Positions 36,101-42,100 of a stretch of 64,000 nt of DNA are shown here, piece by piece; position 1 is the first letter of the stretch, and the number at the start of each line of letters is the position of its first letter. Position numbers and translations under genes: made by a program. The notes below the pieces were generated by a model. That model made no database searches. It was not told the origin of the DNA and was given only the letters and a program-made list of their open reading frames with translations. The stretch is taken from contig JAQGEQ010000390.1 of NCBI GenBank assembly GCA_034620365.1, positions 38,462-102,461 of the forward strand. Direction: 5' to 3'. The DNA comes from Pegea sp. RAD2-039 (Eukaryota > Chordata > Thaliacea > Salpida > Salpidae).

Positions 36101-39100
36101 GTAAACCATCGAAATAAGTTCTTGTTTTTTAGGAGTACTAATTATTTTCTTATTAAAAAGTATTGATGGGATTGTTTCTGTAAAAGTTTTGAAATTGATG
36201 TTTAGAGGTTGGAATTGATGAATGAAAGAACTGAAACTTGTTATGTGGGTTTAGTTGTCTCAATCTAAATAAATGATTAACAAAAACTGTAAATAAAAAA
36301 AAAGATTGAAAATAAAAAATGATTTGAAAAGTAAAAAAATGTCTGAATTTTTAACCAAAAACGTTTTCTGATCTCAAAACATAAAATCAGTGATCTTTTA
36401 TGTAATTTAAAGGAATTATTAACAGTGATGAAGTAACCGGATGTATTATATTTACATAATTAGCAAGCAGATAAAGTATTTCGAAATCCTTTCAGCTTCA
36501 CAGTTACTAAATTACTTTAAATTATTTCCTCTCTTTTACAAACTGCTGTGAAACGAAGTAGTTAAACATTTAATTAAACTACAAATATATTGATTAAATA
36601 AAGTCACCTGATGACGTCACTTAATTCTAACTAAAACCTTCGTGATTAACTTCTACTTAAATACATCTTTAAATCAAATGTATCTTTGATATTTCGATAG
36701 ATTTGAAACGTAATAAGCTAAAATATCCTTATTATCAGGATGTCAGTATCCTGTTAAAAGCTTATGTCTTGTTCACTTTAATTGCTTATCAACTGTGCTT
36801 ATAACAACCAAGGACTTTTGAATTAAAACTTTTTTATCCAATTATTTGATAAATAGAATTAGTTAGAGATTCTTTTTTTTTTTATAAAAATAGCTCATGG
36901 CTTATAGTTTGAGAGCAGAAAAAATTTAGGATAAAAATAACAGAAAGATAATTTGAATGGAATGTTTTTATCAACAAAACTTAAATTAATTTCAAGCGAT
37001 GTCAAAACGAAGTTAGAAAACAAAAAAAATACTCTAAAAAAAATAATAGTTTTTATTATGTTAGTATGTTTGTAAATAAAAATTATTAGTTTTGTAAACT
37101 TATTTATAAAATCAGTAAATTCAAAAAACTCACGGGTTGTAGATCTACTTCTCGCCCAGCAATAGATTACATTAACGACCACCATACCAAAGATAACAGG
37201 TAAAGCAATAAAAATCCAAACCACACTGGAACGTGTTGATGTTTCCAAAGGTCTCTCTTCGAAGATAAAGAAAATTCAAACAGAATTCCATTTAGTATTT
37301 CGCTTTTATCAAAAGTTGTTCATAATTGAAACTTACCAAATAAATAAACACCCATTAATAAAATAAGCATAAATTAGATGTTAAAGCCACCAAAGCAAAA
37401 CAAAAAGTGTAAGAAAATCAGAACCCCCCCCTTTTCCAGAACTTGTTGTTATTCAGGTACATACCTTTGACTGTTAGCCAGGCATCCAAATGTGATACAC
37501 CAATTGAATTGCCAGCTACACATGAATATTTACCAGAATCATCAAGGGTAACATTCCTAACAGTAAATGTTTGTAGATCATGCTCAGTTGAATTCAATCC
37601 GGCTTTCTAGTATTCCAAAAGTGCAGAAAAGGAAAGAAAAACACCAAAGTCACCATCAAGCTTATTAAATAATACTTATTATCACCTATTAGTAAACGTG
37701 CCGAGTAATAAAAACAAATAACTTATTTATTTTTAATTAAATGAAGAATAAGTTCTTATGCCGTTTAATTGTATCACCAGTTGTCAGTGACTTACACATG
37801 CTACCAAGTGAAGCTAACATTAAAGTGAATAAATTAGAATTTCTTTTTTATGTTCCAAAAACTACCATGCAGAAATTAAAACTGAAAAATTGGTGTTTGT
37901 TAGTTCACCTGATTTCCAAACCACCGTAGAAAAAGACTTATAAAAACCTGTTACAGTAATTCTAAATTGTTCAGTTCTGTATCCGTAGCGGTTACTAGCA
38001 TTCACTTCAATTGTCCCAGCATCCATAAAAGTTATATTTGTGAAATGATACTCACAAGAGTTACTGGTATCTTCCATTTGAGTTTTCTGATAATTTTGAG
38101 TTATGGTAGAAACTTACATAATTTCGGAATTGTTTATTTAGTTTGTGATACAATTGAAAACGGCAGAAGACATTAATCTTTGAGATAAACTGTTAAATTT
38201 TCAGATTTTAACTTTTAGATACTTTTTAAGTTTTAATTTGTTTTTATTACTCGGCGTGGCTAAGAAATTTTATGATAATTTTTACTCAAAATTATATAAA
38301 ATTATAATGAGCAAAGCAACAGCATATCAAGAGTGCATTTGAAACAAATCAAATTATGCATAAATTAAATACCACGTGGTATTTACATTGCAAGAAGCAA
38401 ATACATTAAAATACATGCTAAGAACACCACTTAATGAGAAGATGATGATGATGACAAGAGCTAGTTGTTGGTGATGATGTATATGATAAAAAATGTTAAC
38501 ACCAAAAAGCTAAGAAAGTAAAAATGATAATTGTAGACGACAATTTCATGTTAGTGTGAAGTTTGATAAATGGAGATGGTGACGAAAAACTGTTTATGTT
38601 AGTAGTAATGCTTCAATCTATTGGGTATGGTTTCTAATATACCTTTTCATGTAGTGGCTATCCATTTAAATTAGACTGGAATAAAAAGGTCTTATAGAAA
38701 AGTTGTAGAATTCAAGTAAAGATAAATCCAATCAAAAAGTAGAGATATTGATAAGAATATTAAAGATTAAACCTGATTAGCAGCGTTATCTTATCGGGAT
38801 TTTCAAATTGTTTGCTTTAAATCTTAACAACATTTAACTTTACAGGAAATAAAGGTGAAACTGAACAGTAAAAACAAAAAAAAAACCACATGCGTTGTCA
38901 TTGAAGTGGATAGAATGAGATACAAAACTCAAAAAACTTAACCATCAAACTTATGATGTCTTACATTTCACAAAATGTGAATATAAGAAACTAAAATATG
39001 AAAATATATTCAGATTAAAAAAAAAACGAGCATATCTCTGAACATATCCAAGAAAAGTTGTTATAAATTGAATAGGAACTAGTTGTTTCTATTCAAACAC

Positions 39101-42100
39101 AAAAATGTGAAAGCAACAAACTGAAAAAATGACTGAAAATGAATTGGAAAAAACTTTAACTTCCAAATATCAATTAGATTTATGGAAAGTTAGAAGTTTT
39201 TTTCATCAAGCTTATGTAAGAAACCACTAAAAACACCATTTTAACAACAAAAACCAAATCTAACCCGATACCTCTCATAAAACCCTGTGTAATAACCCAA
39301 CAAAAGGTAAACACAGGCAGAAAAAACCGCTTTGAAAGTTTGTACTTACTTGATTTTGCTGTAGACATAAAAAAGAAAAGCATAAGAAAGAGACGAGACA
39401 ATTTCAAATGACCAGAGTTGATTTGTAATCGAAAAATAATCGAGAAAAAAATATATATTTCAAATTCGGGTTTGATGGGGAATTACCTTAAGAAGAATTG
39501 TTCGGTTATTACTGGTATTTCCGGGGATATTTCTGATCCATCTTATATGAGGATGAGGATCACTAAACACTGAACAGTAGAAAGTGACATTTTCGCCAAC
39601 ATATACTGTCTCATTCCTCAAGTTAGATAGGATAGGTTTATGTACTGAACGTTCTGCAGTAGTTGTTCATGATGAAATGATATATAGATGATTTAGAAGT
39701 AGCTAAAAGATATTCTAGCAACTCGTGTGCCAACTTACCACCGATTAGTAAATACGTGCAGCATATAAAGTTAGTTACGATTACATACATGCCTCATTTA
39801 TACACCAAATATTCGTGCAAACACCGAAGTATACATCTGACATAAGTCTCTAATGCTGATGATGATGATGATGACGAGAAAGGTTTTAGTGATGAAGATG
39901 TGGGTTATATTGATGCAAAGCATGAAAAATTGTTCCTTAATTTTAAGCAGATTTTAGAAATGTTAAAAGAAAGGTCCTAGAAGGGGTTTTTTGATGATTA
40001 ATTTTGTTGCTACATTTACGAGTTTTAAAACAATCAATTGTTGCCATAGTTTCCATGTCAACGTGGTTCAGGTACCTTAATCACTTCAAAATAAGATTCA
40101 TTGGTGGTTGGGTCGATTGAGGTTCCATTCTTTTTTATATAACGTTTCCAGTAGATGAACGGATGTGCATCACTGAATACTTCACAGCGTAAAGTCGCGT
40201 TTTCACCCACAAAAAGCGTGAGGTTTGAAGGTGTTATAAACCTTAAAATTGGACGATGGGCTGATCGTTCTGCATATGGTGAATGTTATATTTAAAGGTT
40301 AAAAGTTCCTAGAAGTTGTTGGGGTTGTTGGAGAACGTTTGAAGACTTTTTATGAGTTCAAATAGATGTAATTCAAACATACTCTCAGATAATACAACAC
40401 ACGTTGATGACACATTTGCTTTTTAAACATTATTCTATGAATTGAAAAAATTGAACAAAATATCAAAGTATTTTGTTTGAAAACAAAACATGAAAAAATA
40501 ATTTCAAATCATGAAAAGTATATGAAAGTTTGAAATCAGTCGATAAAAAATAAATAAATATTTAATATAAATATAATATTATAAAATAATAATAAATATT
40601 TTACTAGGTATGGTATGCTTTTCTATTAAATTTCATTCTAAACTTTCTAATCCTAAAAACAATTTTATAAAAATATTTATTGTAAATACAAAATGATTGC
40701 AAAACTTAGTCACGTGATCATTAATTAATTGGTTGTTCTGATGACATTCTAGTTAGACATCGGAAAAGGTGAATTTGATTTTTAAAGTTTCAATTATGAG
40801 ATTGATAACGGTTAAAACGTTTTCAAAACACTTTATATTTATTTCCGGTCACTTCCTGTGTAAACACAAGCCCTCAAAAGCCTAGAAAAATAATTCCAAA
40901 TAGTAATCAAAACATCTTGTAGAAAAACACAAAAGAAAAACCACAGAAAAAGTGGAGAAAGAAAAGATTTTTTGACAAATGATAAAAAAAAAAGCTTTAT
41001 TCGATTTTGAAAACTTTTAATCAAAGTTCCTTTTAATAATATGAATAAAAGCAAACTACAACTACTACCACTAACAACAACATTATTTGAGTTCATTATG
41101 AAAAGAAGAGGCAATAAAACAAAATATATAGTTGGCATCCGGTTCAAATTCATGTGTCATTGAGTAAATAGAATCATTTGATGTAGTTGAAGTCTTGTGA
41201 TATTCTAATAAGTGAACAAACCTTATTTTGTTGTTGATAGAGTTAGTAAATTTGAAAAGATTAGCTAGCAGTTTGCGTAAAGTATAGGGTTACATGAACG
41301 TAGTGAAGCGTAGAGTATAAAAAGAAGTAATGAAACCTCATTTTCTATATACCATTTACAAGAGAGTGTACAAATAGAAATTTCATCAACTTGTCAATTT
41401 CTGTAAATAATACGAATAAGATTTTTATGAAAGAATTGATTTTGCTTCATAACATCTATTTACAAATCATATAATTGAAAGAAAGTTCTAATGAAATAGC
41501 TTTCTCAAGTAGGAAGTTGTAATAATCATTTCTTAAAAGTCAACAGAACAAATATCTTCGACCAAATTATCAATCTAAGTTTGAAAGGAAGTGAAAATCT
41601 AATTACATCCTGTAAATGTTGTAAGAAAATTTAGATTGTTTTAAATTTCATCAAATTCATGTTAAAAACGCTTAATGTGTAAATTTGCCATCTTCAAAAT
41701 CTAAATTGCCCCAAGGCAGACTTGTAAAACACCAAATTCTCCTTTCACAATGACTAGCAAGTCAAAAACTCGGAAGTTCTTTAAAACCACAAGCAGCGGA
41801 AGTTTTTTTGAACGCAATGAGCCGTGACGACTAATCGGACAACATGATGATGTTTGTTGAGAGCAAAACCAGTGAGAGAAGCTCATCAGCTCGTGATGAT
41901 CTACTGACTACCCTTAAAACTGCTAGCTTAGCCCATTTGCTTTTGTCATATCCGGTTAACAAGTTTGATTGAGTTACGAGTCACGCTTCAGTGCTTTCGC
42001 TGACGTCATATCCGTATTTTGCAGCTAGCAACCAAAATTAATTAGTAATAGGTTAGTGGCCAGGTGAAAAAAGTCGCGAATGACGTCACGACTTCTCGAA

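What the first reader, a model, noticed from the sequence alone, without database searches (positions are those of the whole stretch)
37465..40269. FGFR Ig3 encoded by two duplicated half-exons: a 2 x 2 alternative splicing cassette
Exons 6B and 6A both encode the first half of Ig3 (RSxHxPIL, VGENxT, C, FSDxHP, W). Exons 7B and 7A both encode the second half. Both exon 6 copies enter in phase 1 and leave in phase 0; both exon 7 copies enter in phase 0 and leave in phase 1. So 6B-6A or 7B-7A joins would shift frame, while any one 6 plus any one 7 is in frame: four isoforms of the ligand-binding domain. Vertebrate FGFR1-3 alternate only the second half (IIIb/IIIc), and C. elegans egl-15 alternates a different exon. 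Duplicating both halves is not something I know to be described.
Basis: partly seen in the sequence, partly recalled or inferred. Interest (0 to 1): 0.88.

Follow-up and report, generated by a model that had tools for sequence, protein, structure and literature searches.

The report
Sea squirt growth-factor receptor, swappable halves
A sea squirt's FGF receptor gene carries two alternative copies of the coding piece for each half of its ligand-binding domain, so one gene could make four receptor versions; each kind of duplication is known on its own in other animals, but I found no description of both in one gene.

Summary
On the minus strand lies an FGFR gene (18 exons mapped, 45477-29730). 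In transcript order the Ig3 exons are 6A, 6B, 7u, 7d, with AG/GT sites and the stated phases. All four one-6-plus-one-7 paths stay open for 870-880 aa; nine of ten other paths stop early. All four exons score as coding. The genome is an ascidian tunicate. In chordates the second-half duplication is the known IIIb/IIIc event, and an alternative first half (IIIa) is known in insects (PMC5703972). The combination in one gene is what I did not find described.

Two features were not in the finding. Exon 7u lacks the F-strand cysteine and tyrosine corner of Ig3. It is also flanked by a perfect 20-bp inverted repeat whose sequence has no other exact copy in the 105.7-Mb genome, so the RNA could loop 7u out. 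A UGCAUG (Fox-type) site lies 77 nt after 7u; probable Rbfox and Esrp genes are present.

No RNA data exist here, so use of four isoforms is inferred. 7u is the weakest link. New variant of a known kind.

The parts
40076..40269 (-). Exon 6A: first half of FGFR Ig3 (IIIa type), 194 nt, phase 1 to 0
39487..39653 (-). Exon 6B: second copy of the first half of Ig3, 167 nt, phase 1 to 0; 28/55 residues shared with 6A, 26/55 with human FGFR1 IIIa
37948..38086 (-). Exon 7u: divergent second half of Ig3, 139 nt, phase 0 to 1, without the F-strand Cys and Tyr corner
37465..37606 (-). Exon 7d: canonical IIIc-like second half of Ig3, 142 nt, phase 0 to 1
38236..38255 (-). Left arm of the perfect 20-bp inverted repeat, in the intron upstream of 7u
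37700..37719 (-). Right arm of the same inverted repeat, in the intron between 7u and 7d; pairing would loop out 7u
37866..37871 (-). UGCAUG (Fox-type) site, +77 from the 7u donor, inside the loop
45378..45477 (-). Exon 1, start codon and signal peptide (predicted)
44799..45104 (-). Exon 2, Ig1 (306 nt, phase 1 to 1, so skippable in frame)
44706..44733 (-). Two UGCAUG sites with a UGUGUG between, +66 and +88 from the Ig1 exon donor
44192..44212 (-). Exon 3, 21-nt in-frame microexon in the Ig1-Ig2 linker (predicted from splice sites and frame)
43911..44089 (-). Exon 4, first half of Ig2
43592..43715 (-). Exon 5, second half of Ig2
37134..37256 (-). Exon 8, transmembrane segment, enters in phase 1
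34818..35010 (-). Exon 9, juxtamembrane
30513..33578 (-). Exons 10-15, tyrosine kinase domain (HRD and DFG present; introns included in the range)
29730..30104 (-). Exon 16, acidic C-terminal tail and stop codon

Best explanation
This is the FGFR gene of an ascidian tunicate whose third Ig domain, the FGF-specificity domain, is built from two adjacent mutually exclusive exon pairs: 6A or 6B for the first half, 7u or 7d for the second. Shown from sequence: four coding-like exons, matching phases, a full Ig3 frame that is kept only by one from each pair, and low uridine before the four acceptors. Inferred: a 20-bp RNA stem across exon 7u hides or loops it out and brings the exon 6 donor near exon 7d, making 7d (IIIc-like, canonical) the default. 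Opening the stem, with Fox-type protein bound at UGCAUG downstream of 7u and perhaps Esrp, would switch to 7u. Doubly spliced messages stop early. 6A/6B gives two ligand-contacting surfaces with intact Ig cores; 7u gives a domain without the usual disulfide, so probably changed or weakened FGF binding.
For: Exons, sites, phases. Of fourteen paths only the four one-of-each paths keep Ig3 in frame. 6A/6B 28 of 55; 6A 27/63 and 6B 26/55 to human FGFR1 IIIa, so both copies stay about equally close to it; 7u/7d 11 of 46. pN/pS below all 300 random codon pairings for both pairs (the pairs were aligned by similarity, which favours this). Neutral-decay simulation with all divergence on one copy leaves frame and splice sites intact in 28 of 2000 (6B) and 8 of 2000 (7u) runs. 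Codon-usage score of 7u is reached by 0 of 3,335 intron stretches. Acceptor U content: four Ig3 exons mean 0.30, thirteen other exons 0.53, p = 0.003. Inverted repeat: longest perfect pair within 2 kb in the window; two exact copies in the genome, both here; 0 of 200 simulated regions reach 20 bp under each of two models; fold z -4.3, 0 of 100 shuffles as good, stem in MFE and centroid. UGCAUG: 4 on the sense strand of the gene, all +66 to +88 from a donor, 0 antisense. Probable Rbfox and Esrp genes and at least four FGF loci in the genome.
Against: No transcript data. 7u lacks the cysteine and tyrosine corner, its match to 7d is weak, and the genome search with 6A+7d found 6B but not 7u at E up to 10. 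If only part of the divergence lies on the extra copy, the neutral simulation keeps frame and sites in 278 of 2000 (identity 0.75, first half) and 71 or 130 of 2000 (identity 0.50 or 0.60, second half), so it is supportive, not decisive. The repeat and the UGCAUG sites were noticed before they were tested; in whole-window simulations 3 of 60 (order 1) and 0 of 60 (order 3) reach 20 bp somewhere. UGCAUG is not enriched in the window: 6 found, 13 expected. 7d ties with four other exons in acceptor U content (0.38). No comparable stem was found for the 6A/6B pair: of eight intron pairs, 6A-6B with the first part of 6B-7u (z -2.6, 0 of 15) and the 7u pair (z -2.2, 1 of 15) stand out, one pair is weaker than all 15 shuffles, the rest are ordinary. 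No related species could be compared.
Confidence: 0.58

Rival explanations
1. Only the first half is a working alternative. 7u is a relic of the chordate IIIb exon that is still open but rarely or never used, kept out by the stem. The gene then makes two real ligand-binding forms, 6A-7d and 6B-7d.
For: 7u lost the F-strand Cys and Tyr corner; 11/46 identity to 7d; scores 32 against human FGFR2 IIIb and 39 against FGFR1 IIIc; Pfam I-set E 0.0026 for 7u alone, below the curated cut-off; not recovered by the genome search; low-U acceptor.
Against: Open frame, codon-usage score reached by 0 of 3,335 intron stretches, 8 of 2000 neutral runs stay intact when all divergence is on one copy, and a sequence-unique 20-bp stem plus a Fox-type site around it.
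Confidence: 0.22
2. The pairs are coupled: one exon 6 is always joined to one exon 7, giving two isoforms rather than four.
For: The frame permits any combination, so nothing in the DNA excludes coupling; introns share short elements (of fifteen intron pairs, 6A-6B with 6B-7u 0 of 200 and 6A-6B with 7u-7d 2 of 200 resampled pairs as good; the first is largely a CAT repeat).
Against: Exon order 6A-6B-7u-7d is two separate tandem pairs, not two 6-7 blocks, and all four combinations are in frame.
Confidence: 0.13
3. The extra exons act mainly as poison exons: including both of a pair shifts the frame and triggers decay of the message, tuning receptor amount.
For: Both-in paths stop at aa 320-362.
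Against: Poison exons need not keep Ig residues, phases and codon usage; 6B is about as close to human FGFR1 as 6A is.
Confidence: 0.05
4. Assembly or haplotype artefact that placed two alleles or paralogues in tandem.
For: Contigs can be misjoined; nothing else.
Against: Copies differ at half or more of their residues and in length; the introns compared share only short elements; the genome search with 6A+7d finds 6A, 6B and 7d once each.
Confidence: 0.02

Closest known systems
Vertebrate FGFR1-3 exons IIIa, IIIb, IIIc
   Same: Alternative second halves of Ig3 in tandem, intron between the two halves at the same place (vertebrate exon ends recalled), a UGCAUG in the intron between the two second halves (FGFR2: PMC2880598, passages read)
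   Different: IIIa is single in vertebrates (recalled); here it is doubled. The upstream second half lacks the Ig cysteine and is not detectably IIIb-like. The FGFR2 UGCAUG lies near IIIc; here it lies near the donor of 7u
[quoted passage not shown]
   Same: Alternative first half of Ig3 (PMC5703972, Fig. 7 legend)
   Different: In the non-chordates studied there the second half is a single constitutive exon; here it is doubled too
Amphioxus FGFR IIIb, IIIx, IIIc
   Same: Chordate with extra Ig3 exons and mutually exclusive second halves (PMC5703972)
   Different: Extra exon IIIx is included together with IIIc; the passages read do not mention a doubled first half
Dscam1-type docker-selector exon clusters
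   Same: Mutually exclusive exons for half Ig domains (PMC4244043, passage); intronic base pairing that loops out an exon (PMC6071210, passages)
   Different: Two copies per position instead of many; here both halves of one Ig domain vary; one stem was found, no competing partner of similar strength
C. elegans egl-15 exons 5A/5B
   Same: FGFR with mutually exclusive exons under Fox-type control (recalled)
   Different: Different region of the receptor (recalled)

Membership tests
FGFR family | Three Ig domains, transmembrane segment, tyrosine kinase; Ig2-Ig3 most similar to FGFRs | tested here: met
   Pfam on the first 763 aa: three I-set stretches and PF07714 E 3.6e-87; best PDB matches of Ig2-Ig3 are FGFR1, E 1.2e-61; transmembrane segment by eye
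Chordate IIIb/IIIc cassette | Two tandem second-half exons, phase 0 to 1, downstream of IIIa | tested here: met
Chordate IIIb/IIIc cassette | Downstream copy IIIc-like | tested here: met
   7d scores 144 against human FGFR1 IIIc, 81 against FGFR2 IIIb
Chordate IIIb/IIIc cassette | Upstream copy orthologous to IIIb | tested here: inconclusive
   7u scores 32 (IIIb) and 39 (IIIc); position fits, sequence does not decide
Chordate IIIb/IIIc cassette | Canonical Ig cysteine in both copies | tested here: not met
   Val in 7u at the F-strand position
Mutually exclusive tandem-duplicated exons | Homologous neighbours, same phases, joint inclusion breaks the frame | tested here: met
   (homology strong for 6A/6B, weak for 7u/7d)
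Mutually exclusive tandem-duplicated exons | Exactly one exon of each pair in mature messages | not testable with these tools
   no RNA data
Docker-selector RNA structure | Intronic complementary sequences that can loop out an exon | tested here: met
   20-bp perfect repeat around 7u; pairing in the cell not shown
Docker-selector RNA structure | Competing partner for the same docking site | tested here: not met
   Best other partner in the scanned gene span is weaker: -18.1 against -28.6 kcal/mol for the left arm, -17.9 against -30.7 for the right

The most novel reading that the evidence does not exclude
An ascidian FGFR makes four ligand-binding domains from one gene by free combination of two mutually exclusive half-domain exon pairs, joining the insect-type and the chordate-type innovations; a locus-unique RNA stem plus Fox/Esrp control the second choice, and one second half does without the Ig disulfide, giving an FGF receptor with a new binding mode or a ligand-insensitive form.
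Probability: 0.4. Interest if true: 0.78.

Novelty: new variant of a known kind. Interest (0 to 1): 0.6.

Why it matters
The Ig3 domain decides which FGFs a receptor answers. Vertebrates use a second-half swap to separate epithelial from mesenchymal signalling; insects have a first-half swap. An ascidian that has both would allow a direct test of how much ligand specificity each half carries and whether the halves combine freely. It would also give a simple chordate in which the control of FGFR splicing can be studied with a single stem as candidate switch.

Tried and rejected
The 18S search to name the species failed (below), so the species is unknown.

7u as a clear IIIb orthologue: not proven. 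Transposon origin of the inverted repeat: rejected, because the 20-mer has two exact places in the genome and one further with two mismatches. A stem for the 6A/6B pair: looked for, not convincingly found. Competing partner for the 7u stem: none of similar strength. In one search, two of twelve control exons (E11, E15) were entered with a wrong frame, so their rows are not usable; the four Ig3 exons were entered correctly. A structure prediction of the spliced Ig3 forms was not asked for, because the tool's description takes only proteins read directly from the DNA.
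Full report
What is there. The minus strand of the window carries an FGFR gene from 45477 to 29730. I mapped 18 exons, counting the four Ig3 exons separately (the 21-nt exon 3 is predicted from its splice sites and frame alone). With 6A and 7d the spliced reading frame is 880 aa: signal peptide and transmembrane segment by eye, three Ig domains and a tyrosine kinase by Pfam on its first 763 aa. Its Ig2-Ig3 part matches human FGFR1 at E 1.2e-61 in the PDB; the same Ig2 with 6B plus 7u matches at 5e-44, where much of the score comes from Ig2.

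The four exons. In transcript order they are 6A (40269-40076), 6B (39653-39487), 7u (38086-37948) and 7d (37606-37465). All have AG and GT at their borders; both 6 exons go from phase 1 to 0, both 7 exons from 0 to 1. I translated fourteen paths. The four one-of-each paths run to the natural stop. Nine of the ten others stop at aa 251-362.

Are they real coding exons? 6A and 6B share 28 of 55 residues; 6A shares 27 of 63 and 6B 26 of 55 with human FGFR1 IIIa, so neither copy looks as if it drifts freely. 7u and 7d share 11 of 46, with 2 of 500 shuffles as good. Synonymous change is saturated in both pairs, and pN/pS (0.46 and 0.69) is below all 300 random codon pairings, a control that the similarity-based alignment favours. 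A simulated neutral copy that carries all the divergence keeps frame and splice sites in 28 of 2000 (6B) and 8 of 2000 runs (7u); with part of the divergence the figures rise to 278 of 2000 (identity 0.75, first half) and 71 or 130 of 2000 (identity 0.50 or 0.60, second half); indels were not modelled. A codon-usage score trained on five other open frames of this genome, one of them the intronless FGFR, is reached by 2 of 3,152 (6A), 9 of 3,242 (6B), 0 of 3,335 (7u) and 0 of 3,325 (7d) intron stretches. I take all four as coding. 7u departs from the Ig fold: where 7d reads [15 protein letters not shown], 7u reads [15 protein letters not shown], so the F-strand cysteine and the tyrosine corner are gone. 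Its only cysteine lies seventeen residues earlier. Any 7u form lacks the usual Ig3 disulfide. Against 7u also stands that the genome search with 6A+7d found 6B but not 7u and that Pfam gives 7u alone only a sub-threshold I-set match.

Where it comes from. The genome holds a cellulose synthase exon with a weak GH6 match downstream on the same strand and 272 exact copies of the 16-base Ciona spliced leader. From general knowledge these mark an ascidian tunicate. Four loci match the FGF family. A probable Rbfox gene (assigned by reading its exons, since other RRM genes score alike) and an Esrp gene are present. The window GC is low, 20-36% by 4-kb block. The species remains unknown.

How it may work. 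The four Ig3 acceptors are low in uridine: mean 0.30 against 0.53 in thirteen other exons of the gene (p 0.003), though 7d ties with four of these. Weak acceptors are a usual mark of regulated exons. Exon 7u is flanked by a perfect 20-bp inverted repeat, 38236-38255 and 37700-37719. It is the longest perfect pair within 2 kb in the window; the next, 19 bp, lies at 14010 and 15605. The 20-mer has two exact places in 105.7 Mb, both here, and one more with two mismatches, so it is no repeat family. In simulated versions of the region 0 of 200 reach 20 bp under each of two models; in simulated whole windows 3 of 60 (order 1) and 0 of 60 (order 3) do. I noticed the repeat by eye before testing it. 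The RNA from arm to arm folds at z -4.3 with the stem in both the optimal and the centroid structure, and each arm's best partner in the gene is the other arm. Such a stem would loop out 7u and favour 7d. The window has 6 UGCAUG where 13 are expected. The four on the sense strand of the gene all lie 66-88 nt after a 5' splice site (two after the Ig1 exon, one after 7u, one after exon 15 in a minisatellite), and the antisense strand of the gene has none. In mammalian FGFR2 a UGCAUG in the intron between IIIb and IIIc, close to IIIc, lets Fox2 promote IIIb by repressing IIIc (PMC2880598, passages read). Here the site is close to 7u; by analogy Fox protein would favour 7u. No equally clear structure was found for the first pair, though its intron shares two short elements with the introns before and after 7u, one of them largely a CAT repeat. 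These steps are inference; no RNA was available.

What is known. PMC5703972 (passages, and sections 12, 13 and 31 in full) reports that IIIb and IIIc arose by one tandem duplication before the chordate sub-phyla split, that the non-chordates studied have a single constitutive second half, that insects have a mutually exclusive event involving IIIa, and that the Ig3 region is a recurrent hotspot. Its Figure 7 draws Ciona, but figures are not held; the legend names no tunicate-specific exon. The Tribolium paper on two FGFR isoforms and the sea urchin paper were seen only in that reference list and are not held. My searches (listings seen, showing 15 of 19) returned nothing on both halves duplicated in one FGFR. 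The library lacks most subscription journals, so this is a weak negative.

Verdict. It is a tunicate version of a known kind of FGFR splicing choice, extended to both halves of Ig3. The open points are whether 7u is used and whether the pairs combine freely.

Noticed in passing
G000:C47:787934-789397 region (L001, ORF 1261-3360 minus): An intronless second FGFR, one open frame of 699 aa with two Ig domains and a kinase (Ig count by eye), clearly more divergent: probably a retrogene; fruit fly FGFRs are intronless too (PMC5703972 legend).
   Followed up: partly
45104-44799 and 44706-44733: The Ig1 exon is in phase to be skipped and is followed by two UGCAUG sites with UGUGUG between: a candidate regulated Ig1 skip, as in vertebrate FGFR1 (recalled).
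   Followed up: partly
exon 5 (ends 43592) to exon 8 (starts 37256): Joining exon 5 to exon 8 is in frame and would give a receptor without Ig3.
   Followed up: no
window, 20 places: TGACGTCA occurs 20 times against 0.3 expected; one also lies beside an FGF exon in L028. Unexplained motif.
   Followed up: no
30200-31530: A minisatellite of the GTGGACAAGTGGGCC type fills two introns of the FGFR kinase region (by eye).
   Followed up: no
60770-64000: Long tandem array of a short unit (about ATCCTCATCAAATCTTG) with strong strand skew up to the end of the window.
   Followed up: no
G000:C265:340000-381000 and C75:2200-116000: Clusters of kinase matches in long open frames; the two members read look by eye like TSSK-type and CDK-type intronless genes.
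   Followed up: partly
G000:C4:1135044-1142217: Spliced-leader array, 33 listed copies with a period of about 199 bp.
   Followed up: no
39737-39742 and 37920-37925: GGTGGT (possible Esrp-type motif, recalled) lies 89 nt before 6B and 23 nt after the 7u donor; but the gene span has 6 on the sense and 8 on the antisense strand, so it may be chance.
   Followed up: partly
55548-56696 plus strand: Open frame of 382 aa that looks by eye like an Obg/MTG2-type GTPase.
   Followed up: no
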